Shown here piece by piece: positions 2,675 to 19,977 of a stretch of DNA of 21,623 nt (position 1 is the stretch's first letter; each line of letters starts with the position of its first letter). Source of the DNA: a virus; IMG/VR virus record IMGVR_UViG_3300027608_000184, positions 1 through 21,623 of that record. The stretch is one strand, 5' to 3'. A program made the translations under genes and the position numbers. The notes beneath the pieces are model-generated. The model was not told where the DNA came from. It worked only from the letters and a program-made list of their open reading frames with translations, and made no database searches.

Positions 2675-3616
2675 ATGGATATTCGTGAACAAGAGTTTTT
2701 GTGGGTTGAGAAGTATCGCCCACGCACATTAGCCGATTGTATTCTTCCTGCAGATCAAAAGAAGATCTTTCAGGAAATGCTCTCTAAAGGAGAGATTCAA
2801 AATATGCTATTGTGCGGTGGCGCAGGCATGGGCAAGACCACAATTGCCCGAGCATTATGTGAAGAATTACAAACAGACTATATCATCATTAACGGCTCAG
2901 AAGAATCCGGTATTGATGTTCTTCGTACAAAGATTAAACAGTTTGCTTCTACTGTATCATTCAGTGGTAAGCCGAAGGTTGTTATTCTAGACGAAGCTGA
3001 TTATTTGAATCCCAATTCTACTCAACCTGCTCTTAGAGCATTTATGGAAGAGTTCTCATCGAATTGTAGATTCATTTTTACTTGTAACTTTAAGAATCGT
3101 ATTATTCCTCCGCTTCATTCTAGAACTGCGGTAGTTGAATTTAAGTTGCCAAAGGCCGAGAAGCCAAAGATTGCAGCTGCATTCTTCAAGCGTGTTCTTG
3201 AGATTCTCAAGCATGAGTCTGTAGAAGCAGATGATAAAGTTATTGCTAAAGTAATTGAAAAACACTTCCCCGATTATCGTCGTATTCTAAATGAATTGCA
3301 GCGTTATAGTTCTTCGGGCAAAATTGATGAGGGCATTCTTGTCAATATGGGTGAGATCAATATGCAAGAACTCACTGCTGCACTTAAAGATAAAGACTGG
3401 AAGAAGATGCGTACTTGGGTTGTTAATAACATTGACAATGACCCACAGACTTTATTTCGTAAGTTCTATGACACTATGAGTGATAGTGTGGTTCAAGTAC
3501 CACAGCTTGTTTTGTTACTTGCAGACTATCAATATAAATCAGCATTTTGTGCAGACCAAGAAATTAATCTTGTAGCTTGTTTAACAGAGATTATGGCCTC
3601 GGTAGAGTTTAAATGA
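2675..3616 (+). CDS. 44: Clamp loader large subunit, AAA+ ATPase (gp44)
   Basis: At 313 residues this is close to T4 gp44 (319). WVEKYRPRTLAD near the N terminus is typical of clamp loaders. Walker A is GGAGMGKTT (48-56), Walker B ends in DEAD (106-109), sensor 1 is TCN (about 136-138), and an HSR triad (148-150) stands where the SRC arginine-finger motif is expected. With gp62 it opens gp45 and closes it on primed DNA, using ATP. GGAG 8 bases before the ATG supports the start. The start of the next gene overlaps its stop (ATGA). T4 gene 44 is a classical RegA target; the A/U-rich start here would suit that, but no site was tested. Confidence 0.95.
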   Translation: MDIREQEFLWVEKYRPRTLADCILPADQKKIFQEMLSKGEIQNMLLCGGAGMGKTTIARALCEELQTDYIIINGSEESGIDVLRTKIKQFASTVSFSGKPKVVILDEADYLNPNSTQPALRAFMEEFSSNCRFIFTCNFKNRIIPPLHSRTAVVEFKLPKAEKPKIAAAFFKRVLEILKHESVEADDKVIAKVIEKHFPDYRRILNELQRYSSSGKIDEGILVNMGEINMQELTAALKDKDWKKMRTWVVNNIDNDPQTLFRKFYDTMSDSVVQVPQLVLLLADYQYKSAFCADQEINLVACLTEIMASVEFK

Positions 3617-6963: not shown

Positions 6964-7654
6964 TACAAAATTTACATACAAAGATATGCCAACAACGGGC
7001 CTAACAGGGTTAGGCGGTGACGGTGGCGGTAGTGGATGGTCTGGAGACAGTGATATTGATTTGTTGATTGAGGCAACAGGCACATCAGCAAAGCATGAAG
7101 CATTGGAATTAAATGTTAACCTTGCAGATTTAAACATTACTAAGGGACAGCATGAGACGTATGTTGTCACACATAAAAATATTGATGATGTTGTCTTAAC
7201 AATGAAAGATGTTGAACGTCTTGTATGTACAGATAAAGCATTAGCATTAGATGTTAATGGCGAAGCAGGTGAAGTATATTCTTTGTTAGCAGCTGGCTTA
7301 GGGCAAGCTGACGTAACTCCTGCATTGTTAGGTATTGGTCTTGCATTAAAAGATGCAGGCAAATCTGATGTAGAACTTGCACAAATGATACTTGACTCTG
7401 CTCTTTATAAACAAGATGCACTTGGTTCAAGCAACGAAACATTTGTTAAGCATGTATATAAAAACCTTACAGGCGAAACAATTTCATTAGCGGACCTTAC
7501 AGTATTTACAGGTTGGCTAGATCGTAACGAAGTAACACAGGCACAATTGCTTGAAACTGCTTCAAATCTAGAATCATTCAGAGATGCAGATCACATTAAT
7601 TTAGTTGGTGTAGTCGATACTGGTCTTGAATACATTCCATATAATTTGGTATAA
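6953..7654 (+). CDS. DUF4214 domain protein with Gly-rich N-terminal linker
   Basis: 233 residues. A glycine-rich stretch (about 17-31) leads into an acidic body. From about residue 86 the sequence has DUF4214 (PF13946) character: LALDVNGEAGEVYSLL (98-112), LAQMILDSALY (142-152), FVKHVYKNLTGE (164-175) and GWLDRNEVTQAQLL (187-200). DUF4214 occurs in large secreted, S-layer and adhesin proteins, usually as helical repeats. There is no signal peptide, so in a phage a virion protein is likely. AAGGAA before the ATG supports this start. The next late-type box begins within its last sense codon. Confidence 0.7.
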   Translation: MTVSTKFTYKDMPTTGLTGLGGDGGGSGWSGDSDIDLLIEATGTSAKHEALELNVNLADLNITKGQHETYVVTHKNIDDVVLTMKDVERLVCTDKALALDVNGEAGEVYSLLAAGLGQADVTPALLGIGLALKDAGKSDVELAQMILDSALYKQDALGSSNETFVKHVYKNLTGETISLADLTVFTGWLDRNEVTQAQLLETASNLESFRDADHINLVGVVDTGLEYIPYNLV

Positions 7655-7657
7655 ATA
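7650..7657 (+). promoter_or_regulatory. T4-type late promoter box TATAAATA
   Basis: Exact late-type octamer at the very end of the DUF4214 gene. Initiation about six bases downstream would fall near 7663, three bases before the tRNA. It would drive the tRNA, the lipoprotein and the peptidase as one late transcript. Confidence 0.6.
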
Positions 7658-7665
7658 ATTAATAC

Positions 7666-7739
7666 CGCGGATTAGTGAAATGGTATCACAAAGGACTCAT
7701 AATCCTTAGTTCCTAGTTCGACTCTGGGGTCCGCAACCA
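7666..7739 (+). tRNA. tRNA with CAU anticodon (Met; initiator-like C1-A72)
   Basis: A full 74-base cloverleaf can be drawn: acceptor CGCGGAU against GUCCGCA; U8 A9; D stem GUGA/UCAC; anticodon stem AAGGA/UCCUU with loop CUCAUAA (anticodon CAU); four-base variable loop; T stem CCUAG/CUGGG with loop UUCGACU; discriminator A and encoded CCA (7737-7739). In this register the end pair is C1-A72, unpaired, a hallmark of bacterial initiator tRNA. The D-stem pair U11-A24 and the A31-U39 pair are elongator-like, so identity is mixed. Elongator Met or lysidine-type Ile (CAU) remain possible. Confidence 0.9.
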
Positions 7740-7741
7740 TT

Positions 7742-8044
7742 ATGAAAAAAATTATATTATCACTGCTACTAGCTGTATCTACAATTGCTTGTAGTAAAGA
7801 AACAAACAAACCCGTTTTGTGTATGGAAGCAAAAGAGTTGTTTGATGCAATTTTTGAGGAATATCGTGAGACAATACTCATGGTATTTGACCAAGATTCA
7901 TTTCCAAATAAAATTGTTTTAACAGTTAATCCTGCAACAAAGACATGGTCATTAGTCGAATATAATACTGAGATAGCTTGTTTGCTAGGCTCAGGAAATA
8001 ATTATAAGATAATGGGTCGTGTACCAAGTAAAGATTACTTATGA
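7742..8044 (+). CDS. Small lipoprotein
   Basis: A 100-residue protein with a lipoprotein signal: basic MKK, hydrophobic IILSLLLAVSTIA, then Cys17 in a near-lipobox STIAC followed by Ser. The mature part has three more cysteines (27, 79 or nearby) and no recognised domain. It should be exported and lipid-anchored. Start is two bases after the tRNA CCA end; the only purine-rich stretch upstream is GGGG inside the tRNA T arm, so initiation is unusual. It overlaps the peptidase start (ATGA), so the two envelope proteins are coupled. A phage lipoprotein can act in exclusion, lysis or envelope remodelling; none can be chosen here. Confidence 0.75.
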   Translation: MKKIILSLLLAVSTIACSKETNKPVLCMEAKELFDAIFEEYRETILMVFDQDSFPNKIVLTVNPATKTWSLVEYNTEIACLLGSGNNYKIMGRVPSKDYL

Positions 8045-8781
8045 AGTCTATACTATTATTGGCATTACTTATAACGGGTAATGCCTTTTCTATGACAGTA
8101 ACTGCTCATTCGTGGCTTGTAGCTGACGGCAATGGCAAAATAATTCAGAGTGAACGTGTTGAAGAATCTCGTTCAATAGCCAGTATCACAAAACTTATGA
8201 CTGCAATGGTTGTAATTGATGCTGGACAAAATCCAAAAGAAAAGATTGGAAAATTTACAAGGGAACAACATATACAGTTAGCTCTTGTTAAATCTAGTAA
8301 TGAATCTGCTATTTTATTGTGTGACAAATATCCAGGTGGTAAACCAAAGTGTATCCGGGATATGAATGAAAAGGCAGTTGCTCTTAATATGCCTAATACT
8401 AGATTTGTTGAGGCTTCTGGATTGAGTCCAATGAATATTAGTACTGCTAAAGATTTATTAGAATTGACCTTAGCTTCAAGCTACTATCCCGAAATTGTTG
8501 AAGCAAGTAAAACCTCACAAGTAAAAATTCAGATTAAAAAGAAATGGTTCTTCTTTAATAATACTAATCCCATTATTGGAAAGAGACACAATTTTATTGT
8601 AAGTAAAACTGGAACAACAACTGCTGCCGGTGGTTGCATCGTTATGATGATTGATACCGATATCGGCAGACGTGTCGTTGTTGTTCTTGGAAGTAAAAAC
8701 GGTAAGACCAGAATTCCCGAAGCGGAATTTATCGCACTTCGGAAATACCAATTAGAGAACGATAGGAATCCAGAGCCATAA
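8041..8781 (+). CDS. Secreted DD-peptidase, S11 family (DacA-like)
   Basis: 246 residues with a signal peptide (MKSILLLALLITGNAFS). The three active-site motifs of penicillin-binding S11 enzymes are in order: SITK (48-51, nucleophile Ser48), SSN (85-87) and KTGTT (189-193). EASGLSP (124-130) is also typical. The enzyme should remove the terminal D-Ala of peptidoglycan pentapeptides in the periplasm. It is short compared with PBP5 (about 400 aa): the C-terminal beta domain and membrane anchor are absent. It is coupled to the lipoprotein gene. A phage copy suggests envelope remodelling or protection late in infection. Its last 30 bases overlap a convergent gene. Confidence 0.9.
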   Translation: MKSILLLALLITGNAFSMTVTAHSWLVADGNGKIIQSERVEESRSIASITKLMTAMVVIDAGQNPKEKIGKFTREQHIQLALVKSSNESAILLCDKYPGGKPKCIRDMNEKAVALNMPNTRFVEASGLSPMNISTAKDLLELTLASSYYPEIVEASKTSQVKIQIKKKWFFFNNTNPIIGKRHNFIVSKTGTTTAAGGCIVMMIDTDIGRRVVVVLGSKNGKTRIPEAEFIALRKYQLENDRNPEP

Positions 8782-9300
8782 TCCTTGGCTCATTAGTAGT
8801 GCAGCAAATGCACCTACTACAATACTTGCAGTATATAATGCAGGGGCGACAGCTAAGATACTAGCTGATAATAACACAATAGCAATTTGAAATGCTGAAC
8901 CGGCAAATGTCATCCAAGGCCCAGACTTTCGAATTTCATCTCGCTCTGCTTCGAGTGCTTTTGCTTTAGCAAATAATTCTTTTTTGCCTTCACCTGTTGC
9001 AGGCTCAGATTCATATCTATTAATTTTAGCAGTTAACTTATCTGCCTTCTCAAATTGTTTTCTTTCAATTGCATCATCTCTAGCCATTTCAGCAAGAGTT
9101 TGTTTAATAGATTTTGCTTGAAAGAATGCCCAAGTATCATTTGCTTTGATTGTATTGTTTAATACTTTAGAACTATTGCCTGATGCAATATAGGTATTAA
9201 TAGCTAAAAGAGCAGCAAGTACAGTAATTAACCAACCGGCTTTGTCTTTAATTAGTGCTTCTCTTTCGCTTCTGCTAAGAGGTTTCTTTTCTTCTGTCAT
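8752..9300 (-). CDS. DUF4337 membrane protein
   Basis: 182 residues from the chosen ATG; AAGGA a few bases upstream favours it over an in-frame start 24 bases earlier. There is one membrane segment near the N terminus (WLITVLAALLAINTYIA) and a hydrophobic pair at the C terminus (FAGSAFQIAIVLLSASILA and VGAFAALLMSQGLWLWIP), separated by a charged coiled-coil-like middle. SKVLNNTIKANDTWAFFQAK is characteristic of DUF4337 (PF14235). Function unknown. It is the last gene of the minus-strand block, and its 3' end overlaps the peptidase gene on the other strand by 30 bases. Confidence 0.78.
   Translation of the reverse strand: MTEEKKPLSRSEREALIKDKAGWLITVLAALLAINTYIASGNSSKVLNNTIKANDTWAFFQAKSIKQTLAEMARDDAIERKQFEKADKLTAKINRYESEPATGEGKKELFAKAKALEAERDEIRKSGPWMTFAGSAFQIAIVLLSASILAVAPALYTASIVVGAFAALLMSQGLWLWIPIVL
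8773..8791. terminator. Weak symmetric hairpin at convergent gene ends
   Basis: GAGCCA (8773-8778) and TGGCTC (8786-8791) form a 6-bp stem with a 7-base loop over the stop codon of the peptidase gene. It is placed where two transcripts collide and could act in both directions, but neither side has a proper U-tract, and the minus-strand side is inside DUF4337 coding sequence. Confidence 0.3.
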
Positions 9301-9450: not shown

Positions 9451-9603
9451 TTATCCTGATAAAAATCTACCTATTAACCCATTAACAATTCTATCTGACA
9501 AATCGTCTGGTAAGAATTTTAAAAATCCTAAAAAATATAGTGCAACACTTCCATAAACAAAAATTTTCAAACACATGTCAAAAGTCTTTTGATATTCGTT
9601 CAT
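9451..9603 (-). CDS. 50-residue hydrophobic protein
   Basis: Starts in an ATGA overlap with the stop of the upstream gene. It has a hydrophobic stretch at about residues 12-31 (LKIFVYGSVALYFLGFLKFL) and a polar C-terminal half. Probably a small membrane protein. No family recognised; coupling with its neighbour is the main support. Confidence 0.6.
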   Translation of the reverse strand: MNEYQKTFDMCLKIFVYGSVALYFLGFLKFLPDDLSDRIVNGLIGRFLSG

Positions 9604-10097
9604 CTTCCGCACCTATTACCTGTTTGGCAAAACTGCATTAGTTCATATCCACCTATAAACAATACAAATAAAACAAATGCAGCTCCACCAATTACCATGG
9701 CCCATTCGTTTAATTCTTCTTCTTTTTGTTTACGTTTACGCTCTTGGTCGTTGAACATTCTTATATCATTAGCATCGTTTGCATCCATTTCTGCTTGACG
9801 GGCTTTGATCTTATTCCATACGTCAATCTTGCCTGTTTGCATAAACAACATTTTAAGTTCTTCTTCAAATGCTCTGGCCTGTTCTAATGCCATTTCAATC
9901 TGAAGTGCGGTTCCCATGTTGGAACCTTTCTTAGATTTTTTAGCCTCCATTAATGCTTTAGTAGCAGTACTCTTAGCATCAAACATCTTGCCAATCATAG
10001 GAGCAAGTGAACCTAAGTCATTGGCTACTTTACTAGCCTTTTTAACCATGCTTATTGCAGACTGTATACCTGCAAGTGCCGTTATTGGATCTATCAT
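9600..10097 (-). CDS. Conserved phage protein with C-terminal membrane segment (165 aa)
   Basis: MIDPITALAGIQSAISMVKK and the following KASKVANDLGSLAPMIGKMFD are typical of a protein found in many marine T4-like phages. The middle (about 68-128) is charged helix: EMALEQARAFEEELKMLFMQTG and then a basic Lys/Arg/Glu-rich part. A single hydrophobic segment, MVIGGAAFVLFVLFIGGYEL, lies near the C terminus. It could be a membrane-anchored coiled-coil protein. It overlaps its neighbours by ATGA on both sides. Function unknown; a virion or envelope role is inference from the block it sits in. Confidence 0.75.
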   Translation of the reverse strand: MIDPITALAGIQSAISMVKKASKVANDLGSLAPMIGKMFDAKSTATKALMEAKKSKKGSNMGTALQIEMALEQARAFEEELKMLFMQTGKIDVWNKIKARQAEMDANDANDIRMFNDQERKRKQKEEELNEWAMVIGGAAFVLFVLFIGGYELMQFCQTGNRCGR

Positions 10098-10240
10098 TTT
10101 TGTTTACCTTTTTTTTCTTCTTTTTCTTTTCTCCACTCAAGGCAAATCACTTTTCTATTATAGACATCTCCACCCCATGTCCATCGTATACATTCTGGTT
10201 TTTGAATGTACATATACATAGCAAGGGCAGTAGCAAACAT
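10094..10240 (-). CDS. 48-residue hypothetical protein
   Basis: Its ATG overlaps the TAA of the gene upstream by one base and its stop overlaps the next ATG, so it fills the gap exactly. The peptide has a short hydrophobic start (MFATALAMYMYI), two cysteines, a WTWGGDVYNRKVICLEW core and a lysine/glutamate tail. The fixed overlaps and the tryptophan-rich core argue for a real gene. No known function. Confidence 0.62.
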   Translation of the reverse strand: MFATALAMYMYIQKPECIRWTWGGDVYNRKVICLEWRKEKEEKKGKQK

Positions 10241-10827
10241 TATTTATTCGCCAATGGATTATCAATAGCTTTTTGAATTTTATTATCAACTTCCTTCTTC
10301 AACACTTCAACTTCTCTGCTAATCTCTCTACGAGCATCTGCCATTTCTTTACGTATAGCATTTACTTCGCCTCTAGCCTTATCCAAATCTTCTCTCACAT
10401 CTTTGCGAGCCTGGCGCATTTCTTGCTCCGTCTCTCTTTGTGCTAATTTAACACTGCGCTCTACCTGTTCTGTAACTGATTCATTACGACGAATATCGTT
10501 CTTTAAATCAGTCTTAATATCGCGAGTATAGTCTGCGCCCTTTTGGCTATTCTCTTCGATTACTGCTAAACGTTTATCAAATTCTGATAGATCAGGCGCA
10601 GCATAACTTGCGATCTTCTTTTTCATATTAATGTAATCTTGGTAGAATTCAAATGTGCCGTACAATCCACCTAACGCAGATGATACGATACCTGCGGCAA
10701 TCATTAACTTCGCAGGGGTAAATTCATATCCCCCGATACTAATAACAGTATCTTTGCTTGCGTATTTTTTAGCTGCCGCTTCTAATTCGTCAACTTTTGC
10801 GTTTAAGTTCTTACCTTCTTCTGCCAT
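10240..10827 (-). CDS. Membrane-anchored coiled-coil protein (195 aa)
   Basis: The ATG at 10827 has AGGAG 9 bases upstream, so I prefer it to an earlier in-frame ATG at 10893. The protein starts with a charged helix, has one hydrophobic segment (LMIAAGIVSSALGGLYGTF, about 41-59) and then about 130 residues of highly charged heptad-like helix rich in Arg, Glu and Lys. This is the architecture of a long coiled-coil stalk. Its start overlaps the preceding small gene by 17 bases. Similar proteins occur in marine T4-like phages near structural genes; function not established. Confidence 0.75.
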   Translation of the reverse strand: MAEEGKNLNAKVDELEAAAKKYASKDTVISIGGYEFTPAKLMIAAGIVSSALGGLYGTFEFYQDYINMKKKIASYAAPDLSEFDKRLAVIEENSQKGADYTRDIKTDLKNDIRRNESVTEQVERSVKLAQRETEQEMRQARKDVREDLDKARGEVNAIRKEMADARREISREVEVLKKEVDNKIQKAIDNPLANK

Positions 10828-10990
10828 TTTTGTCTCCTGCTTTTGTTTGGCTAGATACCATTCGTACCCATTCTTTTTTGGCTTCAAGATCATCTATAGC
10901 ATTTTGTACTTTTTTACTGTTTTTGTTTATAATACTTGTTGCTGATAATCCTAGCCCAATTCCTATAATCATGTGAGCAATATACCACAT
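10811..10990 (-). CDS. 59-residue single-span membrane protein
   Basis: A frame starting 9 bases after the stop of the large secreted-protein gene and ending inside the next gene. MWYIAHMIIGIGLGLSATSI is a likely membrane helix; the rest is basic and polar, including VQNAIDDLEAKKEW. The start has GGAA about 7 bases upstream. The gap would otherwise be empty in a fully packed block. Family not recognised. Confidence 0.6.
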   Translation of the reverse strand: MWYIAHMIIGIGLGLSATSIINKNSKKVQNAIDDLEAKKEWVRMVSSQTKAGDKNGRRR

Positions 10991-10999
10991 ATTATTCCA

Positions 11000-12826
11000 C
11001 TACTTATATTGTTGATCAACCATTTGTTGATGTAATCTATCAGAACTCATTTGTCTTAATGCTCTAACATTATCTACGGTCTTTTGATTTTTATAAATTT
11101 CTTTTGGTGCATAGAATGCAACATCCGGTATCATAAAGAAATATTGTGAGTAATTTGCAGGTTGTTTTGCAATTGATTCTATTGTTATATTGCCTGCCAA
11201 CTCGTTGTTATCTACATTCTTTTTAACACTATCATTTTGCTGAGAGTTATCATTCATTTGAGGCATGAACGGTTTAGATTCCATTGCAGAATCTACTGCA
11301 TTTTTATGCCCAAATTTTATTCCCTCAAGCATAGGTATTTCAACTTGCGGTTGAGATAAAGCCCTTGTGGGTGCAACTAAACTATATGATACTTGAGGCG
11401 TGACCATTGCCACAGTAACTTCCTGCCTTGTAGTATTTTGATAACTACTTTGTTGAGTAGTTGTTCCTGTAAAGTTTAATGTATTTGATTGTGAACTAAC
11501 ACTGCTATTAATTGATTGTTGTATTCTTGCAGCATTAGATGCATTACTTGATTGCTGATTACCTTGTAACGACACCATTGAACTTTGTGTTTGTGTAAAT
11601 GATGATTGTGTTCCTGCCGTTTGTGCAGTAGCAGTTGATCCGCCAGCAGTGCTCATACTTTGAGATTGCATATCACCTGCAATTTTTTCAGCTTGTTGCT
11701 TTGCTGTTTCTCCTGCAGAAAATGCTTGAGCATCAGCCGATTGTACTACAGATTTTTCCAATGCAGATGTTTTATCCTGATTAGAACTAATCATATTAAG
11801 AACTGAAGATAAAGATACCGGAGAACTTTTTCCACCGCCTCCAGAATCTGCTACCTCACCTGCTCTAGGTTGCTGATTATTTGCAGCCGGTTGCGATGCA
11901 GCTTGTTGCGGTGCTGGGCCAGCAGCAGGTGCACCGGGTTGTATAGGCCCTGGTTGCGTTGGAGAAGTAGAGCTATCCGGTAAAGGCTGACTTCCAGGTA
12001 ATGGGGTACTACCTGGTGGAGGTGCAATTCCAGTTGTTGTAATTGTGACATTATCAACTGTAGTTTGAACTCCTGTTGGTGTTGGTTCTGCAACTATTGT
12101 AGTCGGTAGTGGTTGTGGGGTCAATTTAGCAAGTGCTTCAAAATAACCAGAACAAGTTGGACTACTTAATACATTAGTCGCACATGGGTCTACAGAATAT
12201 TTTAAACTAAAACTTACATTATAAATTTCAGGACCATATGGACCCGCCCAAAAGTTATTGTCTCTTCCGACAAAACCATATTGAACACTTCCTAAATCTT
12301 TAGATGCGAAAGGACTATTAAATGTTTCGGAATAGTTAAATGTTGTCCAGTTAAATCTAGAATTTAAATCATAGTTTTTATTGAATACTGTAGAACCGTT
12401 TGCACCATATAAACTGACATAAGCAGTAAGATAGTCCATTCTTCCATCATCCCACCCATTTCCGTTCTTAGCAGTAAATCCAAAATTATATCCGTTTACT
12501 GAAAGTCCAGTTCCTGTGTTTGGTAGAATATTTGCAATTGTTTGCAGCTGATACAAATTGGTCATACCATAAGAAAAGTTAATGCTATCTCCCGGACGAA
12601 CAATTGGATTTGGCCCACAATAACCTGGATCGCCCCAACCCCAACAAGTGAGATTGTTCTGATAGACGCCATTTACCCAAGGTGTAGGTCCACCTTGAGG
12701 AGTTGTTTGGACAATATTTCCTGTGGTATAGACTTGACCTGGCTCTGGTGTTTGCGCTTTACTTGAAAGCAGCGTGAACAAGAACGCCAAGCAAAGAGCC
12801 GAAGCCAATGTTTTTAGCAGTTTCAT
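11000..12826 (-). CDS. Secreted Gln/Ser/Pro-rich protein (608 aa)
   Basis: The chosen ATG gives a clean signal peptide (MKLLKTLASALCLAFLFTLLSSKAQ); the frame extends 105 bases further upstream without one. The N-terminal region, about residues 30-240, looks like a folded beta domain with repeated WGWGDPGYCGP, YGANGSTVF and FVGRDNNFW type segments. It is followed by a Pro/Gln/Ser/Thr-rich low-complexity region (about 245-480) and a less biased C terminus. The layout suggests an exported, possibly surface or virion-associated protein. Its first 68 bases overlap the previous gene in another frame. Related proteins are known from marine phages, without function. Confidence 0.78.
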   Translation of the reverse strand: MKLLKTLASALCLAFLFTLLSSKAQTPEPGQVYTTGNIVQTTPQGGPTPWVNGVYQNNLTCWGWGDPGYCGPNPIVRPGDSINFSYGMTNLYQLQTIANILPNTGTGLSVNGYNFGFTAKNGNGWDDGRMDYLTAYVSLYGANGSTVFNKNYDLNSRFNWTTFNYSETFNSPFASKDLGSVQYGFVGRDNNFWAGPYGPEIYNVSFSLKYSVDPCATNVLSSPTCSGYFEALAKLTPQPLPTTIVAEPTPTGVQTTVDNVTITTTGIAPPPGSTPLPGSQPLPDSSTSPTQPGPIQPGAPAAGPAPQQAASQPAANNQQPRAGEVADSGGGGKSSPVSLSSVLNMISSNQDKTSALEKSVVQSADAQAFSAGETAKQQAEKIAGDMQSQSMSTAGGSTATAQTAGTQSSFTQTQSSMVSLQGNQQSSNASNAARIQQSINSSVSSQSNTLNFTGTTTQQSSYQNTTRQEVTVAMVTPQVSYSLVAPTRALSQPQVEIPMLEGIKFGHKNAVDSAMESKPFMPQMNDNSQQNDSVKKNVDNNELAGNITIESIAKQPANYSQYFFMIPDVAFYAPKEIYKNQKTVDNVRALRQMSSDRLHQQMVDQQYK

Positions 12827-13985
12827 ATTTGTCTTCTTTAGGTCGTTGTGGGATTTTATCTTTATTATCTTCCCATGCAAGTTTAGCTTGTTCACCAATC
12901 TTACCCTCAATCGGACAAGGTGTTCCAGCATTCATCATTGCGTTAAACACTCGCTCATCCTGACACATGACTGCTACTGCAGCAACTTTCATTCCCATAT
13001 CATAAAGGGTCTTAGAAAGTTTTAATCTTTCACAATTTAAATCTCTTATTGTTCCGCCAGATGAAACACCAAATACTTGTGTTTGTACTGAACCAGATGA
13101 TCCTGTACTACATAGATCATTGTTTCCGCCACTCATCATTGTAGGTGCAACTGCTGTTGGTGGAGGCTGAATTACTCTTTGCGTAATAACAGTTTCGTTT
13201 TTATTGATATTAGTTACTTCACCAGAATTTATGTTCTGATTAATGTTTGCATTTTGATTCACATTATTATTTGTGCTAACACTTTGCGATGTAGAAGTAC
13301 TGATATTACGATTAGTCATGTCTCCCGTATTCACATTGTTATTTGTGTTTGTAGAAGTACTTACATTATTATTTGTTGCTGTACTAACATTGTTATTATT
13401 GTATGTCATTGTACCAGTATTTTCATTTTTATTAACATTGGTGCTTGTGGATGTACTTACACTATTGTTATTATTGTTGAATGTCTGAGTACCACTATTT
13501 ATATTGTAATTTGTATTGGTGTTAGTATTGTTACTTGTAGATGACGATGTATTCTGATTGACATTTGTTAATGTGCCAGAATTAACATTATTGTTATTAT
13601 ACGTCATTGTACCAGAATTGACGTTATTGTTATTAAGCGTCTGTGTTCCGCTATTAACATTGTTATTAGTATTTACGGTTGTACTTGTACTGGTACTTGC
13701 ATTATTGTTGTTATTAGTATTTGTAGAAGTACTATTTACAGTAGATGTGCTGGTTGCAGTACTGTTACTTGTTGCTGTACTATTACTATTAACTGTGCTT
13801 ACACTATTAGAAGTGCTATTGGTGTCTACTAACGATTTACTGTCATAACTACCTTGATTGATAATACTAGTAGTTCCTGTTGTCGTTCCTCCAGTTGTGC
13901 TAGAGGTCCCACTTGTCGTTTGCGCCAAAGTGCTACCAAACATCATAACAAAAAGTGCCATTGCGGCTACCTTTTTGTTGAACAT
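12759..13985 (-). CDS. Secreted Asn/Ser/Thr-repeat protein (408 aa)
   Basis: AAGGAG precedes the ATG. A signal peptide (MFNKKVAAMALFVMMFGSTLAQ) is followed by about 245 residues made almost only of Asn, Ser, Thr, Val and Gly. Part of it repeats about every 12 residues around an NVNSGT core (about 108-140, again at 162 and 253), suggesting stacked beta strands. The C terminus (about 285-408) is a normal folded domain with Cys292, 318, 341 and 357, including MKVAAVAVMCQDERVF and MNAGTPCP, and ends in a hydrophobic segment. That domain seems conserved in marine phages. The repeat region could form a beta-solenoid or amyloid-like fibre; this is inference. Confidence 0.82.
   Translation of the reverse strand: MFNKKVAAMALFVMMFGSTLAQTTSGTSSTTGGTTTGTTSIINQGSYDSKSLVDTNSTSNSVSTVNSNSTATSNSTATSTSTVNSTSTNTNNNNNASTSTSTTVNTNNNVNSGTQTLNNNNVNSGTMTYNNNNVNSGTLTNVNQNTSSSTSNNTNTNTNYNINSGTQTFNNNNNSVSTSTSTNVNKNENTGTMTYNNNNVSTATNNNVSTSTNTNNNVNTGDMTNRNISTSTSQSVSTNNNVNQNANINQNINSGEVTNINKNETVITQRVIQPPPTAVAPTMMSGGNNDLCSTGSSGSVQTQVFGVSSGGTIRDLNCERLKLSKTLYDMGMKVAAVAVMCQDERVFNAMMNAGTPCPIEGKIGEQAKLAWEDNKDKIPQRPKEDKYETAKNIGFGSLLGVLVHAAFK
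13169..13922 (-). repeat. Low-complexity AAT/ACT/GTN coding repeat
   Basis: The DNA coding residues 22 to about 272 of the repeat protein is a mosaic of Asn, Ser/Thr and Val codons. Tandem units of about 36 bases encoding NNNNVNSGT-x-T are clearest around 13560-13670. Third positions vary between units, so the peptide pattern is better kept than the DNA. Such a tract is prone to slippage, yet the frame is open throughout. Confidence 0.7.
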
Positions 13986-14046: not shown

Positions 14047-17000
14047 TTATTTTGTCTCAAATGCTCTTTCCGGGGGTGTAAAACCAGTTGAAGTATAACG
14101 AGCATATCCTCGAGTGATACGAAGATCATCTATGTAACCATTTAATGAGCCCGAGGCCTCGTCGTACCCGTTTACGCCAAGTATCGGTCTATTGGCATTG
14201 CCGCAAACATAGTTATTGGTATCGGTATACGTTGACCCAACTTGCTGCCCGTTAATAAAAAGTTTACTAACACCAGATGCTCTTGCATACGCAATATGAT
14301 ACCATGTCTGAGTATTTATAGTGCCACCTATAATCATTGTCTGCCCAGTTCCATTATATGCCTGTAGTTGATTTGAATTTATTTGCATTGCAAATCTACC
14401 TGAACCAGAAGCATCTCCTCCATTATTTGTATCAATTAAATGGCCGTTATTTGATAATGTATATATCCACATTTCAATTGTAAAATCAGCATTACCCATA
14501 GAATACAATGCCTGTTGATTGCCCGTTACAGTTACGAAATCTGTGGTGCCATCAAAATACATACTACTTAAACCATACTTATACTGCGTTGTAGATAATT
14601 TTACATCGTTAACTGTTCGTAAATTAGTATTCATTGATGCATCATATATACCAGCATTTGTAAAATTACATAACAATTTCGTGTTAGCGATTGCTGTTAA
14701 TGGTGTTGTTGGCGGAGTAGTATTTGCTGTATATACTGCGGTGCCATTAACAATGCGAACATCTGAAATCCATCCTGTTACATACTCAAAATTGCCAGCA
14801 CCATTACGACCAATACCCACTACCTGTGAAGAATCAGTTATTGCCAAGGCACCCATATTTAAATCAGGGCCTTTAACTCCGTTAACATATACATTAACCA
14901 TTGCACCATTACGAACACCCGCAATATGATACCATTGATTAATTTTTGCAGTTGTGCCAAATGTTGAGTAATACATTGTTCCCGCATAACCTACTGCAGC
15001 AAATGGAAAAGATGTATTGGTTAGTCCAAGTACAAAACTCATTGAGCCTTGATTGCCAGGAGCATCACATGTTCCGATAAAAACTTGTTGCGCTACACTG
15101 GATAAATATACCCAACATTCAATAGTAAAATTATTAGTCCCCATAGTGAATGCAGTTGAATCTGGTATAGTTAAAGCATCACTGCCGTCAAGATATACAG
15201 ATCCGCTATAGACATCTGCCGGATATGATCTGTCAAAGGCATAAGGAGAGAATTTAAGTACCTTAGGAGCACCGCTCAATGTTATCGTATGATTATTTGT
15301 TGCATTATCTTTAAATCCGTAAGATTGACAAGTTAATAATACTGTATTTGTTATTGCAGTTAATGGCGCAGTTGGTACAGTATAATTACCGGTATATGCA
15401 AATGAACCTTTTAAAATTCTAAAGTCAGATATATACCCAAAAAATTCAGATACAAACTGACTATTTGCTCCGCCTATAACCGCTGCTCGATAATATGCTG
15501 TTTGGGTTGACATATTTTGAGACGTAAACGTATTTAACAATACTCCATTTGCAAACAACTTAACAGTTGCACTTGATGATGTTGTTGCATCAACTGTTAC
15601 TGCAATATGATTCCATTGGTTTTGTGTTATTGCAGATGCTGTAGATGCAAGATCATTTTGTGTACCGGTTCCTGTAGTATACGAAAAATTTAATTTTGAC
15701 GTAGTTGCTGCAGTTTTCTCTAAATATATTAGCCATCTACCATTTGCGGCAACTGCAGCATATGCTCCAGTAATAGCTTGCCCATATGATCCACCATTGA
15801 AGTTTGTAGGATAAATCCACATTTCAAATGAAATAATATTACCTGCAAATCCAGTACCCATTGCAGTATTAAGTGCGGAATCGGGATACATATAACTAGA
15901 TCCATCAAAGTAATTACTCCATTTAGTACCATACGGAGCAAACGTTCCAGGAGTAGAATCTCCGACACGTGTTATTGCAAAATTATTTGTTGAGCTATCC
16001 ACAAATACTTTATTGTTTGCATTGTTTGTTCCATTTGCAGATATTAACAATGTGACATATTTGAAATAAGGATCTGTTGCTATAGTAGGTGTTAGGTATC
16101 CGGAAAAACTACTTAGAATACTACTACCAACACTATTGGTTGCATAAACCGCAAACACATAGGTTGTATTATAATTCAAACCCGTTATGCTAATATTACC
16201 ACTTTCTGCACCTTGACGCGTAACAGTTCTATTTTCTGGAACAGTTGTTAGTGTGTAACTTGTAATAGGAGAATTACCGTTAAAACTTGGCGCAGTATAT
16301 CCTATATTTGCAGCACCATCAGATGCTTCCCACGTAGCCATTATCGGAGGATTTGGAACAGTTAGTGTTTGTACACTATTAGATATTGTCGCATTACCAC
16401 TCCCCGCAGAATTTGTTGCACTTACAGCAAAAGTATAATTTGTATTAATTGATAATCCACCTACTGTAATGTTTCCGCTATTAACAGTAGCAGTTACGTT
16501 ACCAGGAATACTTCTTGCAGTATATGAAATAATTGCAGAGTTACCAATATAATCGGGGGCAGTATAAACAATGTCAGCAGCCGTTCCGGAAATTGATCTT
16601 GCATATAATACCGTAGGTGCCCCTGGTACATTATATGTAAATATGTTAGATGATGAATTACTTGAAATGCCTCTGCCATATTCATTTACTGCATATACAG
16701 AAAAACTATGTGACACATTTGGTGATAACCCTGTTATAGTAATATTACCACTGTTAGCAGTATTCACAGTTGTAGCCGCGCCACCTACATTATTTACTGC
16801 AGTATAAGATGTAATTGTCGAATTGCCATTATATGCAGGTGCGGTGTATACTATATTTGCAGTTGAAATAGATGTCAACTCAACATAATTAATTGTTGGC
16901 GCCGAAGGATAACTATTTGTAGTAATAGAATTACTTGAAGAACTATTTACACTAGGACCATCGGTGTTGTTAGCAGTCACACTAAAAGTATAGGTTGTAT

Positions 17001-17250
17001 TATCGGTTAATCCATTTACTGTAATTATCCCAGACTCCGAGGAATAAATATCCTGTCTTATTCCCCCGGGATATGCAATCGCAGTATACCCAGTTATGGG
17101 CGTATCCCCTGTAAAAATTGGAGCAGTAAATGACACATTTGCACTGGTGTTTGAAACTATGAAAGCAGTCCCAATCGTAGGAGCATCTGGAACACGCAAT
17201 GTCCCTCGTAAATTAAAGCCCGATGTTATATTAGTTCCCGATATTATCAT
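14047..17250 (-). CDS. Adhesin/fibre protein: four FN3-like and three LamG-like domains
   Basis: 1067 residues without a signal peptide. Four fibronectin type III-like domains lie at about 20-111, 115-206, 208-294 and 297-389, each with P-x-x-PT, an NIVYTAP-like strand and an NTTYTFSV-like strand. Then three concanavalin-A/LamG-like domains follow at about 396-625, 635-845 and 855-1062, each with FEMWIYP/IECWVYL/IEMWIYT and a late WNHIAVT/WYHIAGV/WYHIAYA strand. FN3 stalk plus lectin-like tips is a host-binding layout, so a tail fibre or virion-surface adhesin is likely. The first 390 residues are paralogous to the protein at 17671-19977. There is no evident Shine-Dalgarno. Confidence 0.85.
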   Translation of the reverse strand: MIISGTNITSGFNLRGTLRVPDAPTIGTAFIVSNTSANVSFTAPIFTGDTPITGYTAIAYPGGIRQDIYSSESGIITVNGLTDNTTYTFSVTANNTDGPSVNSSSSNSITTNSYPSAPTINYVELTSISTANIVYTAPAYNGNSTITSYTAVNNVGGAATTVNTANSGNITITGLSPNVSHSFSVYAVNEYGRGISSNSSSNIFTYNVPGAPTVLYARSISGTAADIVYTAPDYIGNSAIISYTARSIPGNVTATVNSGNITVGGLSINTNYTFAVSATNSAGSGNATISNSVQTLTVPNPPIMATWEASDGAANIGYTAPSFNGNSPITSYTLTTVPENRTVTRQGAESGNISITGLNYNTTYVFAVYATNSVGSSILSSFSGYLTPTIATDPYFKYVTLLISANGTNNANNKVFVDSSTNNFAITRVGDSTPGTFAPYGTKWSNYFDGSSYMYPDSALNTAMGTGFAGNIISFEMWIYPTNFNGGSYGQAITGAYAAVAANGRWLIYLEKTAATTSKLNFSYTTGTGTQNDLASTASAITQNQWNHIAVTVDATTSSSATVKLFANGVLLNTFTSQNMSTQTAYYRAAVIGGANSQFVSEFFGYISDFRILKGSFAYTGNYTVPTAPLTAITNTVLLTCQSYGFKDNATNNHTITLSGAPKVLKFSPYAFDRSYPADVYSGSVYLDGSDALTIPDSTAFTMGTNNFTIECWVYLSSVAQQVFIGTCDAPGNQGSMSFVLGLTNTSFPFAAVGYAGTMYYSTFGTTAKINQWYHIAGVRNGAMVNVYVNGVKGPDLNMGALAITDSSQVVGIGRNGAGNFEYVTGWISDVRIVNGTAVYTANTTPPTTPLTAIANTKLLCNFTNAGIYDASMNTNLRTVNDVKLSTTQYKYGLSSMYFDGTTDFVTVTGNQQALYSMGNADFTIEMWIYTLSNNGHLIDTNNGGDASGSGRFAMQINSNQLQAYNGTGQTMIIGGTINTQTWYHIAYARASGVSKLFINGQQVGSTYTDTNNYVCGNANRPILGVNGYDEASGSLNGYIDDLRITRGYARYTSTGFTPPERAFETK
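16084..17250 (-). repeat. Duplicated FN3 module, copy 2
   Basis: Codes for the first about 390 residues of the LamG-bearing protein. It is collinear with copy 1 at 18787-19977: start ATGATAATA, the same order of four FN3 domains and near-identical runs, for example around 16822-16870 against 19544-19592. Confidence 0.75.
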
Positions 17251-17268
17251 TGTGTTTATTTTATTAAA

Positions 17269-17658
17269 TTATTCAGGAGTCGTAAAAATAAGTTCTTCCC
17301 ATCCAACAATGGATTCATTCCATTTATAAGCTTTTCCTTCATCCGTAGGTGAACGCTTTCCATCTGCTGGGTAAGGAATAGGGGGATTCCACAAACAAGT
17401 ATCTTCATCCATTACCCATGAATTATATGGCTTTGGTGGAATAAACGCATCTCGTTCCCTATCATAAGTATATCCAATACCTGCAAAATTTTTTCGTAAT
17501 GGAGTGCCTCCCAATTTGTGCATTCCCCCATATGTATTATATGATGTTTGTATCCAAGATGCCGGATCACCAAACAGTCCAGTATTAATTACTTCTTGAT
17601 CCGCAACAATAACTTGTGCAACTATATTAGTTTCATTAATTTGTGCAAAATGTGCCAT
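17269..17658 (-). CDS. Conserved small phage protein, fibre-associated (129 aa)
   Basis: Starts MAHFAQINETNIVAQVIVAD and contains WIQTSYNTYGG (about 36-46), RKNFAGIGYTYDRERDAF (about 55-72), PPKPYNSWVMDE and a W-x-PP-PYP region. This pattern is common in marine T4-like phages, often next to fibre genes; it is sometimes annotated as structural. GGGAG lies 8 bases upstream of the ATG. It sits between two paralogous fibre genes and may be a chaperone, tip or collar component, which is inference from position. Confidence 0.8.
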   Translation of the reverse strand: MAHFAQINETNIVAQVIVADQEVINTGLFGDPASWIQTSYNTYGGMHKLGGTPLRKNFAGIGYTYDRERDAFIPPKPYNSWVMDEDTCLWNPPIPYPADGKRSPTDEGKAYKWNESIVGWEELIFTTPE

Positions 17659-17670
17659 TATATTTTCTCC

Positions 17671-19977
17671 CTACAAAGTAATCGATCCCGATTGCCAGAA
17701 TCTATAAGTTCTCCATCCGCCAGCTACTGTTACGTTAGGGCTTCCTGTGGTTAAGGTGGCCGCAGGTTCGGAATCAGCGTATCTAATAACTGCAACACCT
17801 GAACCGCCTGTATTATTAGTTATTACTCCACCCCAGAATCCTGTCCCGGCGCCAGATCCACCGCCAGTATTAGTTGTGCCATTTACGTTAATAGTTCCTC
17901 CGCCAGAACTTGCTTGATTTGCCGCACCTGCTCCGGCACTGGTACCACCACCTGCATATCCAACTGATGAACCAGAAATACTATATGCTAAACCTGGGCC
18001 GCCGTTACCACCGCCAGATCCATAGTAACCGCCATCTACACCATTGCCTCCGGCTCCGCCACCTCCTCCGCCTACGGCATTTCCTCCAGCAGCATATGTA
18101 TCTCCCGCGCCACCGCGATATCCTTGCCCATCAACATTTGATCCATAGTTACCGCCGCTGCCATTACCAGCAGATCCTCCAGATGAGCCGCCATCGCCGC
18201 TGATAGAAGGAGTATAAGATTGATTCCCGCCTCTACCACCTCCTATTGCAATTAGATTTACAGACTGACCTACTATTAAAGAGTTTGATCCGTTTGCAAA
18301 TCCTGTTCCTCCAGACCCAATCGTTACGGCATAATTGCTTCCTTTTAACAATTGAACGTTCGACCCGTTTGGTGGTTTTGGTGTTTCTGTACCATAATAT
18401 AATAGGCCACCTGCACCTCCGCCTCCATTACAATCATTATATCCGCCACCGGAACCGCCGCCTCCACCTGCTATCAATAACAACTGTGTTGCGATTGGTG
18501 TTGGCGCTGTTAATGTGTGGTATACTGCCGTACTAGGTAAACTATTTCCTGAAACATTTGTAGCCACTACTGTAAATTCGTAATTCACATTAGTAGTCAA
18601 TCCTGTAACTGTAATATTTCCAGAGGTTGTTCTCGTAACTGTTGAATATACAATACCATTTGCATTTGCGGTATAACTTATAATAGAATCGCCACCATCA
18701 AAAACAGGGGCAGTATAAACTATATTTGCTTGGCCAATAATATCGCCAGATTTAACATATGATATTGAGGGTGCCCCTGGATTAGTAGTTGCTTTAATGT
18801 AGTTACTAAATTCGCTTAATATACTACTACCAATATTATTAGTTGCATAAACGGCAAACACATATGTCTTGCCAATAGTCAATCCCGGCATAAGAATACT
18901 ACCACTGTTTGCGGTTAATACTGTAGTTGTTCTATTTTCAGGAACACTAACTAAAGTATAACTAGTGATTGGCGTACTTCCTGTAAAGCTAGGTGCAATA
19001 TAACTTATATTAGCCGTACCACTTAATTGTGACCATGCAGCCATTATAGGTGCATTTGGAACTGTGAAAGTTGTTATACTATTACTTATATTACTATTTG
19101 AACTTGTGCCAAAAGCATTTGTAGCAGTTACCACAAATGTGTAATCTGTATTTCTTGTTAGGCCACCTAATGAAATATTTCCGCTATTGGCAGTATTTAC
19201 AGTTGCTCTTACATTGCCAGGAATACTAGTTGCAGTATAAGATATAATTTCAGAATTACCATTTATTGCAGGTGCGGTATAAACAATATTTGCACTTACT
19301 CCATCCCTTGTTTCTGCATATGATATTGTAGGTGAATTTGGGGCAGAATATACAGTAGGATGAATAAAGAACCCATTTGTTAAATTACTCGAAATTCCTC
19401 TGCCATATTGATTTACGGCATAAACAGAAAACCCATGTGTTATGTTATTTGCTAATCCGGTTATAGTAATATTTCCGCTATTGGCAGTACTAACTGTAGC
19501 AGATACGTTACCCACATTACTTACTGCAGTGTATGATGTAATTGTTGAATTGCCATTATATGCAGGTGCAGTATAAACAATATTTGCAGATGTAGAGGAA
19601 GTAATTTCTACATAACTAATTGTTGGTGCGGGAGGATAGCTATCTGTTAAAATTAAATTACTTGAAGAACTATTTGCACTAGGACCATCACTATTATTTG
19701 CGGTAACACTAAATGTATAATTAGTATTGTCATTCAATCCGGTAATTGTAATATTAGATGCATTTGGATCTAATATTTCATTTTTAATATTGTCCGGAAA
19801 AGATAATGCGGTATATCCTATAATAGCAGAATCTCCGTTTAATACAGGTCCTGTAAATGATATATTGACGCTGTTATTGGATAATACATTAGCAACACCT
19901 ATCGTAGGCGGTTCAGGCGCTCTAAACTGCGATTTGAGAGTGACCCCGTTTGAAACATTAATTCCGGTTATTATCAT
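17671..19977 (-). CDS. Adhesin/fibre protein: five FN3-like domains and polyglycine-rich tip
   Basis: 768 residues, no signal peptide. Five FN3-like domains at about 20-112, 116-208, 212-303, 305-397 and 399-489, the first four paralogous to those of the protein at 14047-17250. From about 497 the protein becomes glycine-rich: LLIAGGGGGSGGG, then many GG blocks to about 726, and a closing GGSGVAVIRYAD. This is like the glycine-rich C-terminal domains of phage adhesins and related bacterial proteins, where polyglycine helices pack as a sandwich and the loops bind receptors. Host recognition is therefore likely. No Shine-Dalgarno is visible; a late-like box lies 34 bases upstream. Confidence 0.85.
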   Translation of the reverse strand: MIITGINVSNGVTLKSQFRAPEPPTIGVANVLSNNSVNISFTGPVLNGDSAIIGYTALSFPDNIKNEILDPNASNITITGLNDNTNYTFSVTANNSDGPSANSSSSNLILTDSYPPAPTISYVEITSSTSANIVYTAPAYNGNSTITSYTAVSNVGNVSATVSTANSGNITITGLANNITHGFSVYAVNQYGRGISSNLTNGFFIHPTVYSAPNSPTISYAETRDGVSANIVYTAPAINGNSEIISYTATSIPGNVRATVNTANSGNISLGGLTRNTDYTFVVTATNAFGTSSNSNISNSITTFTVPNAPIMAAWSQLSGTANISYIAPSFTGSTPITSYTLVSVPENRTTTVLTANSGSILMPGLTIGKTYVFAVYATNNIGSSILSEFSNYIKATTNPGAPSISYVKSGDIIGQANIVYTAPVFDGGDSIISYTANANGIVYSTVTRTTSGNITVTGLTTNVNYEFTVVATNVSGNSLPSTAVYHTLTAPTPIATQLLLIAGGGGGSGGGYNDCNGGGGAGGLLYYGTETPKPPNGSNVQLLKGSNYAVTIGSGGTGFANGSNSLIVGQSVNLIAIGGGRGGNQSYTPSISGDGGSSGGSAGNGSGGNYGSNVDGQGYRGGAGDTYAAGGNAVGGGGGGAGGNGVDGGYYGSGGGNGGPGLAYSISGSSVGYAGGGTSAGAGAANQASSGGGTINVNGTTNTGGGSGAGTGFWGGVITNNTGGSGVAVIRYADSEPAATLTTGSPNVTVAGGWRTYRFWQSGSITL
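18787..19977 (-). repeat. Duplicated FN3 module, copy 1
   Basis: Codes for the first about 397 residues of the polyglycine-bearing protein, collinear with copy 2 at 16084-17250. Similarity stops after the fourth FN3 domain: this copy gains a fifth FN3 domain and the glycine-rich tip, the other gains LamG domains. Confidence 0.75.

What the first reader, a model, noticed from the sequence alone, without database searches (positions are those of the whole stretch)
7742..8781. Phage late operon of a lipoprotein and a compact S11 DD-peptidase
All three S11 motifs are intact and a signal peptide is present, so this is probably an active periplasmic penicillin-binding enzyme. It lacks the C-terminal domain and membrane anchor of DacA, and the SxxK to SxN spacing (37 residues) is short. 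Coupling with a lipoprotein suggests an anchored pair that edits host peptidoglycan: to limit lysis, aid lysis, or block other phages.
Basis: partly seen in the sequence, partly recalled or inferred. Interest (0 to 1): 0.6.

Follow-up and report, generated by a model that had tools for sequence, protein, structure and literature searches.

The report
Phage-carried PBP7-type cell-wall endopeptidase
A freshwater phage carries a small secreted enzyme of the kind that cuts cell-wall cross-links in bacteria (PBP7), in a shortened form otherwise seen here only in SAR11-type bacteria, and a relative of the phage also has a separate standard set of lysis genes, so the enzyme probably loosens or remodels the host wall rather than being the main lysis enzyme.

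Summary
In detail: a lipoprotein ORF (7742-8044) overlaps by 4 nt an intact S11 serine peptidase with a signal peptide (8041-8781; SITK, SSN, KTG; SxxK-SxN spacing 37). The interpretation needs correcting. (1) The enzyme belongs to the PBP7/PbpG DD-endopeptidase subfamily, not DacA; PBP7 lacks DacA's extra domain, so its absence means little. (2) The short spacing is real: 60 of 61 unique phage copies and 4 of 4 Pelagibacterales copies have 37, against 57 in 101 of 106 other cellular PBP7s; phage and Pelagibacterales proteins form one clade. (3) The lipoprotein is an optional insert between a tRNA(CAU) and S11. The steadier neighbour is a convergent DUF4337 membrane-protein gene, which also sits beside S11 in one SAR11-type chromosome. 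(4) The best-assembled relative (157 kb, T4-like) has its own GH19 endolysin, holin and spanin candidates, so S11 is not the endolysin there. Best reading: a late periplasmic DD-endopeptidase under purifying selection (dN/dS about 0.1) that cuts 4-3 cross-links without PBP7's septal targeting helix. Whether it aids lysis, sustains wall growth or opens the wall for neighbouring envelope proteins is undecided. No isolate phage record searched holds a close homologue.

The parts
7650..7657 (+). TATAAATA, T4-type late promoter -10 consensus
   Evidence: 4 copies on the + strand of the window against 1.9 expected; same offset (-92/-93 from the next gene) in 10 of 13 pair-bearing loci and in L160, which lacks the lipoprotein
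7666..7739 (+). tRNA with anticodon CAU (called tRNA-Met), 2 nt before the lipoprotein start codon
   Evidence: a tRNA(CAU) lies within 700 nt upstream of S11 in 39 of 58 unique phage loci
7742..8044 (+). 100-aa lipoprotein ORF, optional insert between tRNA and S11
   Evidence: lipobox STIAC (Tyr in L007/L008); no Pfam match
8041..8781 (+). S11 / PBP7-type DD-endopeptidase, 246 aa, with signal peptide
8182..8193 (+). SxxK motif (SITK, residues 48-51)
   Evidence: Invariant in alignment A3
8293..8301 (+). SxN motif (SSN, residues 85-87)
   Evidence: S and N invariant in alignment A4
8320..8352 (+). Cys94...Cys104 (CDKYPGGKPKC), candidate disulfide shared with Pelagibacterales copies
   Evidence: Both Cys invariant in A3; motif in 40/61 phage, 4/4 Pelagibacterales, 2/106 other cellular proteins
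8605..8613 (+). KTG motif (residues 189-191)
   Evidence: Invariant in A4
8752..9300 (-). DUF4337 membrane-protein gene, convergent with and overlapping the 3' end of S11
   Evidence: PF14235 9.8e-30; conserved neighbour in phage loci; beside S11 in a SAR11-type chromosome, L222/L290
9600..10097 (-). protein with C-terminal transmembrane segment (phrog_32327), downstream module
10240..10893 (-). coiled-coil protein with a transmembrane segment (sequence reading), downstream module
11000..12931 (-). 643-aa protein, probably secreted (sequence reading), downstream module
12759..13985 (-). 408-aa Asn/Thr-repeat protein with signal peptide (sequence reading), downstream module
   Evidence: (phrog_20531)

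Best explanation
The S11 gene encodes a Sec-exported, soluble periplasmic DD-endopeptidase of the PBP7/PbpG subfamily. Ser48, helped by Lys51, Ser85 and Lys189, would attack the D-Ala-mDAP (4-3) bond between peptide stems and open cross-links in the host wall (inferred from family chemistry and the model). Unlike E. coli PBP7 it lacks the C-terminal helix that brings PBP7 to the septum and has about 20 residues fewer between SxxK and SxN, so it should act along the whole wall (inferred). It is made late in infection together with a tRNA and, in this clade, a small lipoprotein (inferred from the promoter motif). Because a relative carries a separate endolysin, holin and spanin, I think it most likely weakens or remodels cross-links before or during lysis as an accessory enzyme. 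The gene lineage is shared with SAR11-type bacteria; the direction of transfer is open.
For: PBP7 subfamily: NCBIfam PRK11669 6.1e-42 against 8.9e-13 for DacD; best PDB matches are the PBP7 structures 6azi and 6muq by sequence and fold (TMq 0.82). Catalytic Ser48, Lys51, Ser85, Asn87 and KTG invariant across 41 phage and cellular sequences. Purifying selection, dN/dS 0.06-0.19. Separate GH19 endolysin (phrog_181 1.5e-76), holin and Rz-like spanin in relative G001. E. coli PBP7: S67/S124/K231 needed for activity, overproduction lyses cells, C-terminal helix dispensable for activity but needed for midcell position (PMC11586513); S67 to S124 is 57 residues, the canonical spacing counted. Late motif.
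Against: No activity was measured. A. baumannii PBP7 has both endo- and carboxypeptidase activity (PMC13059705), so carboxypeptidase action is not excluded. The lysis genes were seen in a relative (S11 77% identical), not in the window's own fragment. The late motif is short, is absent from three of 13 pair-bearing loci, and the relatives are not independent. A secreted active hydrolase could endanger lysis timing.
Confidence: 0.6

Rival explanations
1. Wall-growth support (auxiliary gene): the enzyme keeps the sacculus expanding in a small-celled host during a long infection, replacing or boosting a limiting endopeptidase.
For: Only 3 of 147 sampled Pelagibacterales genomes have a PBP7-type enzyme; the other matches are DacA-length proteins. 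Endopeptidases are needed for wall expansion (abstracts of PMC11211486 and PMC8996183).
Against: Host not established; if it is a Methylophilaceae, nearly every genome already has PBP7. The late motif fits less well.
Confidence: 0.2
2. Wall opening for a phage-encoded envelope assembly: S11 makes gaps for the membrane and secreted proteins encoded next door (DUF4337, 9600, 10240, 11000, 12759).
For: Gene neighbourhood kept across the phage loci; S11-DUF4337 adjacency also in a SAR11-type chromosome although both genes are rare in that order. A similar role was proposed for a SagA-like enzyme with a CsgGF pore in phage Melnitz (PMC9004378).
Against: The module lies on the opposite strand and is sometimes 2-3 kb away; adjacency with DUF4337 was found in one cellular genome only, and none of the other DUF4337 loci fetched has S11 beside it.
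Confidence: 0.15
3. Superinfection exclusion by altering cross-links, possibly with the lipoprotein.
For: Weak PHROG match of the lipoprotein family to Cor superinfection exclusion (best E 0.0043).
Against: The match for the window's protein covers residues 1-50, which include the signal peptide, and is weak (E 0.033); the lipoprotein is not a constant partner; late expression suits exclusion poorly.
Confidence: 0.05

Closest known systems
PBP7/PbpG (D-alanyl-D-alanine endopeptidase, S11; PDB 6azi, 6muq)
   Same: Fold, three motifs, MNxKA region, no DacA-type C-terminal domain, signal peptide
   Different: About 35-38% identity; SxxK-SxN spacing 37 instead of 57; no C-terminal localisation helix; Cys94/Cys104 pair; encoded by a phage
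Short PBP7-like S11 of Pelagibacterales (L066, L067, L222, L224)
   Same: Spacing 37, LCxxYPGGxxxC, on one side of a 100/99 branch with the phage proteins; up to 61% identity
   Different: Chromosomal; not next to a tRNA/lipoprotein; DUF4337 co-directional (L222) or absent nearby
phrog_5304 (phage 'peptidase')
   Same: Phage protein family matched at E 1.8e-24
   Different: 386-position profile; not specific to this clade
Melnitz gp67 SagA-like hydrolase in an OM43 phage (PMC9004378)
   Same: Extra wall hydrolase in a related T4-like phage of streamlined aquatic hosts; gp44 of the window is 62% identical to Melnitz
   Different: Annotated as a glycosyl hydrolase, a different family; no S11 match in Melnitz

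Membership tests
Peptidase family S11 | SxxK, SxN and KTG motifs on the PBP5/PBP7 fold | tested here: met
PBP7/PbpG subfamily | Best match to PRK11669 rather than to Dac families | tested here: met
   143.8 bits against at most 48.3 for other families
PBP7/PbpG subfamily | Score above NCBIfam's equivalog cut-off (294 bits) | tested here: not met
   143.8 bits, so a divergent relative, not the named equivalog
PBP7/PbpG subfamily | SxxK-SxN spacing of about 57 | tested here: not met
   37 here
PBP7/PbpG subfamily | DD-endopeptidase activity on 4-3 cross-links | not testable with these tools
   Needs purified protein
DacA/PBP5 carboxypeptidases | C-terminal beta domain and amphipathic anchor | tested here: not met
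   246 aa; the model ends with helix 224-242
Phage endolysin | Main lysis hydrolase beside holin/spanin genes | tested here: not met
   In relative G001, S11 lies at 90 kb and the GH19 endolysin/holin/spanin set at 64-66 kb; not testable in the window's own fragment
Bacterial lipoprotein (7742-8044) | Lipobox with invariant Cys | tested here: inconclusive
   Present in the window; Tyr in L007/L008, no lipobox in L057

The most novel reading that the evidence does not exclude
S11 and DUF4337 form a two-gene wall-remodelling unit exchanged between SAR11-type bacteria and aquatic phages, in which the endopeptidase opens the sacculus for an envelope-spanning structure built from the neighbouring phage membrane and secreted proteins.
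Probability: 0.15. Interest if true: 0.65.

Novelty: new variant of a known kind. Interest (0 to 1): 0.42.

Why it matters
It corrects 'DD-carboxypeptidase' to PBP7-type endopeptidase, which changes the predicted action from trimming stem ends to cutting cross-links. It points to a large family of phage-carried PBP7-type enzymes (426 viral stretches encode a relative) that shares a structural signature with a few SAR11-type bacteria. It offers a natural minimal PBP7 for asking what the 20-residue segment and the targeting helix do.

Tried and rejected
S11 as the phage's endolysin: rejected for the relative G001, which has its own lysis set. Lipoprotein and S11 as an obligate pair: rejected. 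Host by tRNA: the window tRNA gave only short weak matches in 8 genomes; the tRNA array of L025 gave mixed SAR11 and Methylophilaceae signals; host left open. Region L025:7079-7533 suspected to be a tmRNA: Rfam found none; it is an ORF. DUF4337 as a general partner of PBP7 in bacteria: not seen in the other cellular S11 or DUF4337 loci fetched. Literature: Limnohabitans phage DC31 ORF110 and Dishui Lake DSL-LC01 ORF7 are annotated as D-Ala-D-Ala carboxypeptidases, but their family could not be checked; vanY genes in freshwater viral contigs are a different family by annotation. The searches of the paper library found no report of phage PBP7; most subscription papers are not held.

Full report
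Observation. The window is a 21.6 kb IMG/VR virus record. The motifs are SITK (48-51), SSN (85-87) and KTG (189-191); the first two are 37 residues apart. The N-terminus reads as a type I signal peptide without a lipobox. The surroundings are T4-like: gp44-like clamp loader (2675-3616, best isolate matches Melnitz 62%; Pelagibacter phage Mosig 57%), Hsp20, and, by my reading of the sequence, sliding clamp, gp62 and RegA.

Which S11. NCBIfam ranks the PBP7/PbpG endopeptidase model first by a wide margin (143.8 bits against 48.3 for the next), although below its equivalog cut-off of 294. The closest solved structures by sequence are the PBP7-type enzymes 6azi and 6muq. An AlphaFold model (pLDDT 91.7, pTM 0.87) matches 6azi best (Z 32.9, rmsd 1.9 over 223 residues; TMq 0.82). 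So the missing DacA domain is expected of this subfamily. The model ends with helix 224-242. The helix A287-D312 that E. coli PBP7 needs for midcell placement but not for activity (PMC11586513) therefore has no counterpart here; this last point is inference from length.

The short spacing. Among unique proteins, 60 of 61 phage copies have spacing 37 and one has 43; 4 of 4 Pelagibacterales copies have 37; 101 of 106 other cellular proteins have 57. In a maximum-likelihood tree the phage and Pelagibacterales proteins form one side of a 100/99 branch. The Pelagibacterales rows sit between the divergent phage row L037 and all other phage rows (93/78 and 92/96), so the direction of transfer is not settled, and long branches (L037 among them) call for care. 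Only 3 of 147 sampled Pelagibacterales genomes carry the gene (E 1e-92 to 1e-104), whereas the best other genome in a 398-genome sample of the phylum scores 4e-50 and the best of 60 Methylophilaceae 1e-54; completeness of these genomes is not stated, so absences are not proof. A candidate disulfide (LCxxYPxGxxxC) is in 40 of 61 phage, 4 of 4 Pelagibacterales and 2 of 106 other proteins.

Neighbourhood. A tRNA(CAU) lies within 700 nt upstream of S11 in 39 of 58 unique phage loci with enough flank, and within 60 nt in 16. In the window's clade the lipoprotein fills that gap; in other loci the gap is empty or holds another short ORF. On the other side a convergent DUF4337 gene and four further minus-strand genes keep their order, directly adjacent or 2-3 kb away, in most of the T4-like loci, though not in all S11-bearing contigs. 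In one Pelagibacterales genome (G076, on a contig with trpA/trpB-like, pyrF-like and folC-like genes by my reading, so chromosomal) S11 (61% identical to the window's) and DUF4337 are side by side on one strand. DUF4337 was found above cut-off in only 1 of 147 genomes of that order, so the adjacency is unlikely to be chance. DUF4337 is commoner elsewhere in the phylum (51 of 299), without S11 beside it in the loci read.

Expression and selection. TATAAATA lies at 7650-7657, 8 nt before the tRNA, and at the same offset in 10 of 13 pair-bearing loci (the window included) plus L160, which has no lipoprotein. Several TATAAATA sites in G001 lie 13-78 nt before ORFs, as expected of late promoters, but the total count there is near expectation (10 against 7.2), so the evidence is moderate. 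Pairwise dN/dS is 0.06-0.19 for S11 and 0.09-0.32 for the lipoprotein: both are maintained proteins.

Is it the lysin? In G001 (157 kb; T4-type uvsX, gp32, uvsY, gp59, gp15 and others by Pfam) a GH19 endolysin (phrog_181, 1.5e-76), a holin match and an Rz-like spanin match lie together at 64-66 kb, about 25 kb from S11. S11 is therefore an extra wall enzyme there. The window fragment itself shows no lysis genes, so this is transferred from a relative.

Mechanism. Shown: intact conserved active site, fold, selection, position. Inferred: export, cleavage of D-Ala-mDAP cross-links, late timing, action along the whole wall. PBP7 overproduction lyses E. coli, which makes an accessory lysis role natural; A. 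baumannii PBP7 has both endo- and carboxypeptidase activity, so the exact cut needs an assay. Wall-growth support and wall opening for the neighbouring envelope module remain live rivals.

Known or new. S11 enzymes in phages are known (phrog_5304; 45 records in the phage collection at about 34% identity or less, most of them bulk faecal contigs), but no record there holds a close relative of this clade. I rate it a new variant of a known kind. Limits: no complete genome of the window's own phage, host unknown (GC 36% for the window and 38% for G001; S11 points to SAR11, gp44 to a Methylophilales phage), and no experiment.

Noticed in passing
window 7666-7739: The tRNA called tRNA-Met ends 2 nt before the lipoprotein start codon, so processing of the tRNA would leave a nearly leaderless mRNA; its anticodon loop CTCATAA would also suit a tRNA-Ile(CAU). 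Identity not tested.
   Followed up: no
window 9600-13985: Minus-strand module of two membrane proteins and two secreted repeat-rich proteins, conserved in the T4-like relatives; almost no match in the phage records searched.
   Followed up: partly
L025 7079-7567: 162-aa ORF inside the 23-tRNA array with 66-68% nucleotide identity to small-genome Methylophilaceae chromosomes, a host hint that conflicts with the SAR11 affinity of S11.
   Followed up: partly
L174, L217, L180: Relatives of the S11 gene lie on contigs of 353, 270 and 203 kb, larger than the 157 kb of the T4-like relative G001.
   Followed up: no
window 14047-19977: Two large proteins with fibronectin type III domains, one also with concanavalin-like domains, probably tail fibre or adhesin parts.
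   Followed up: no
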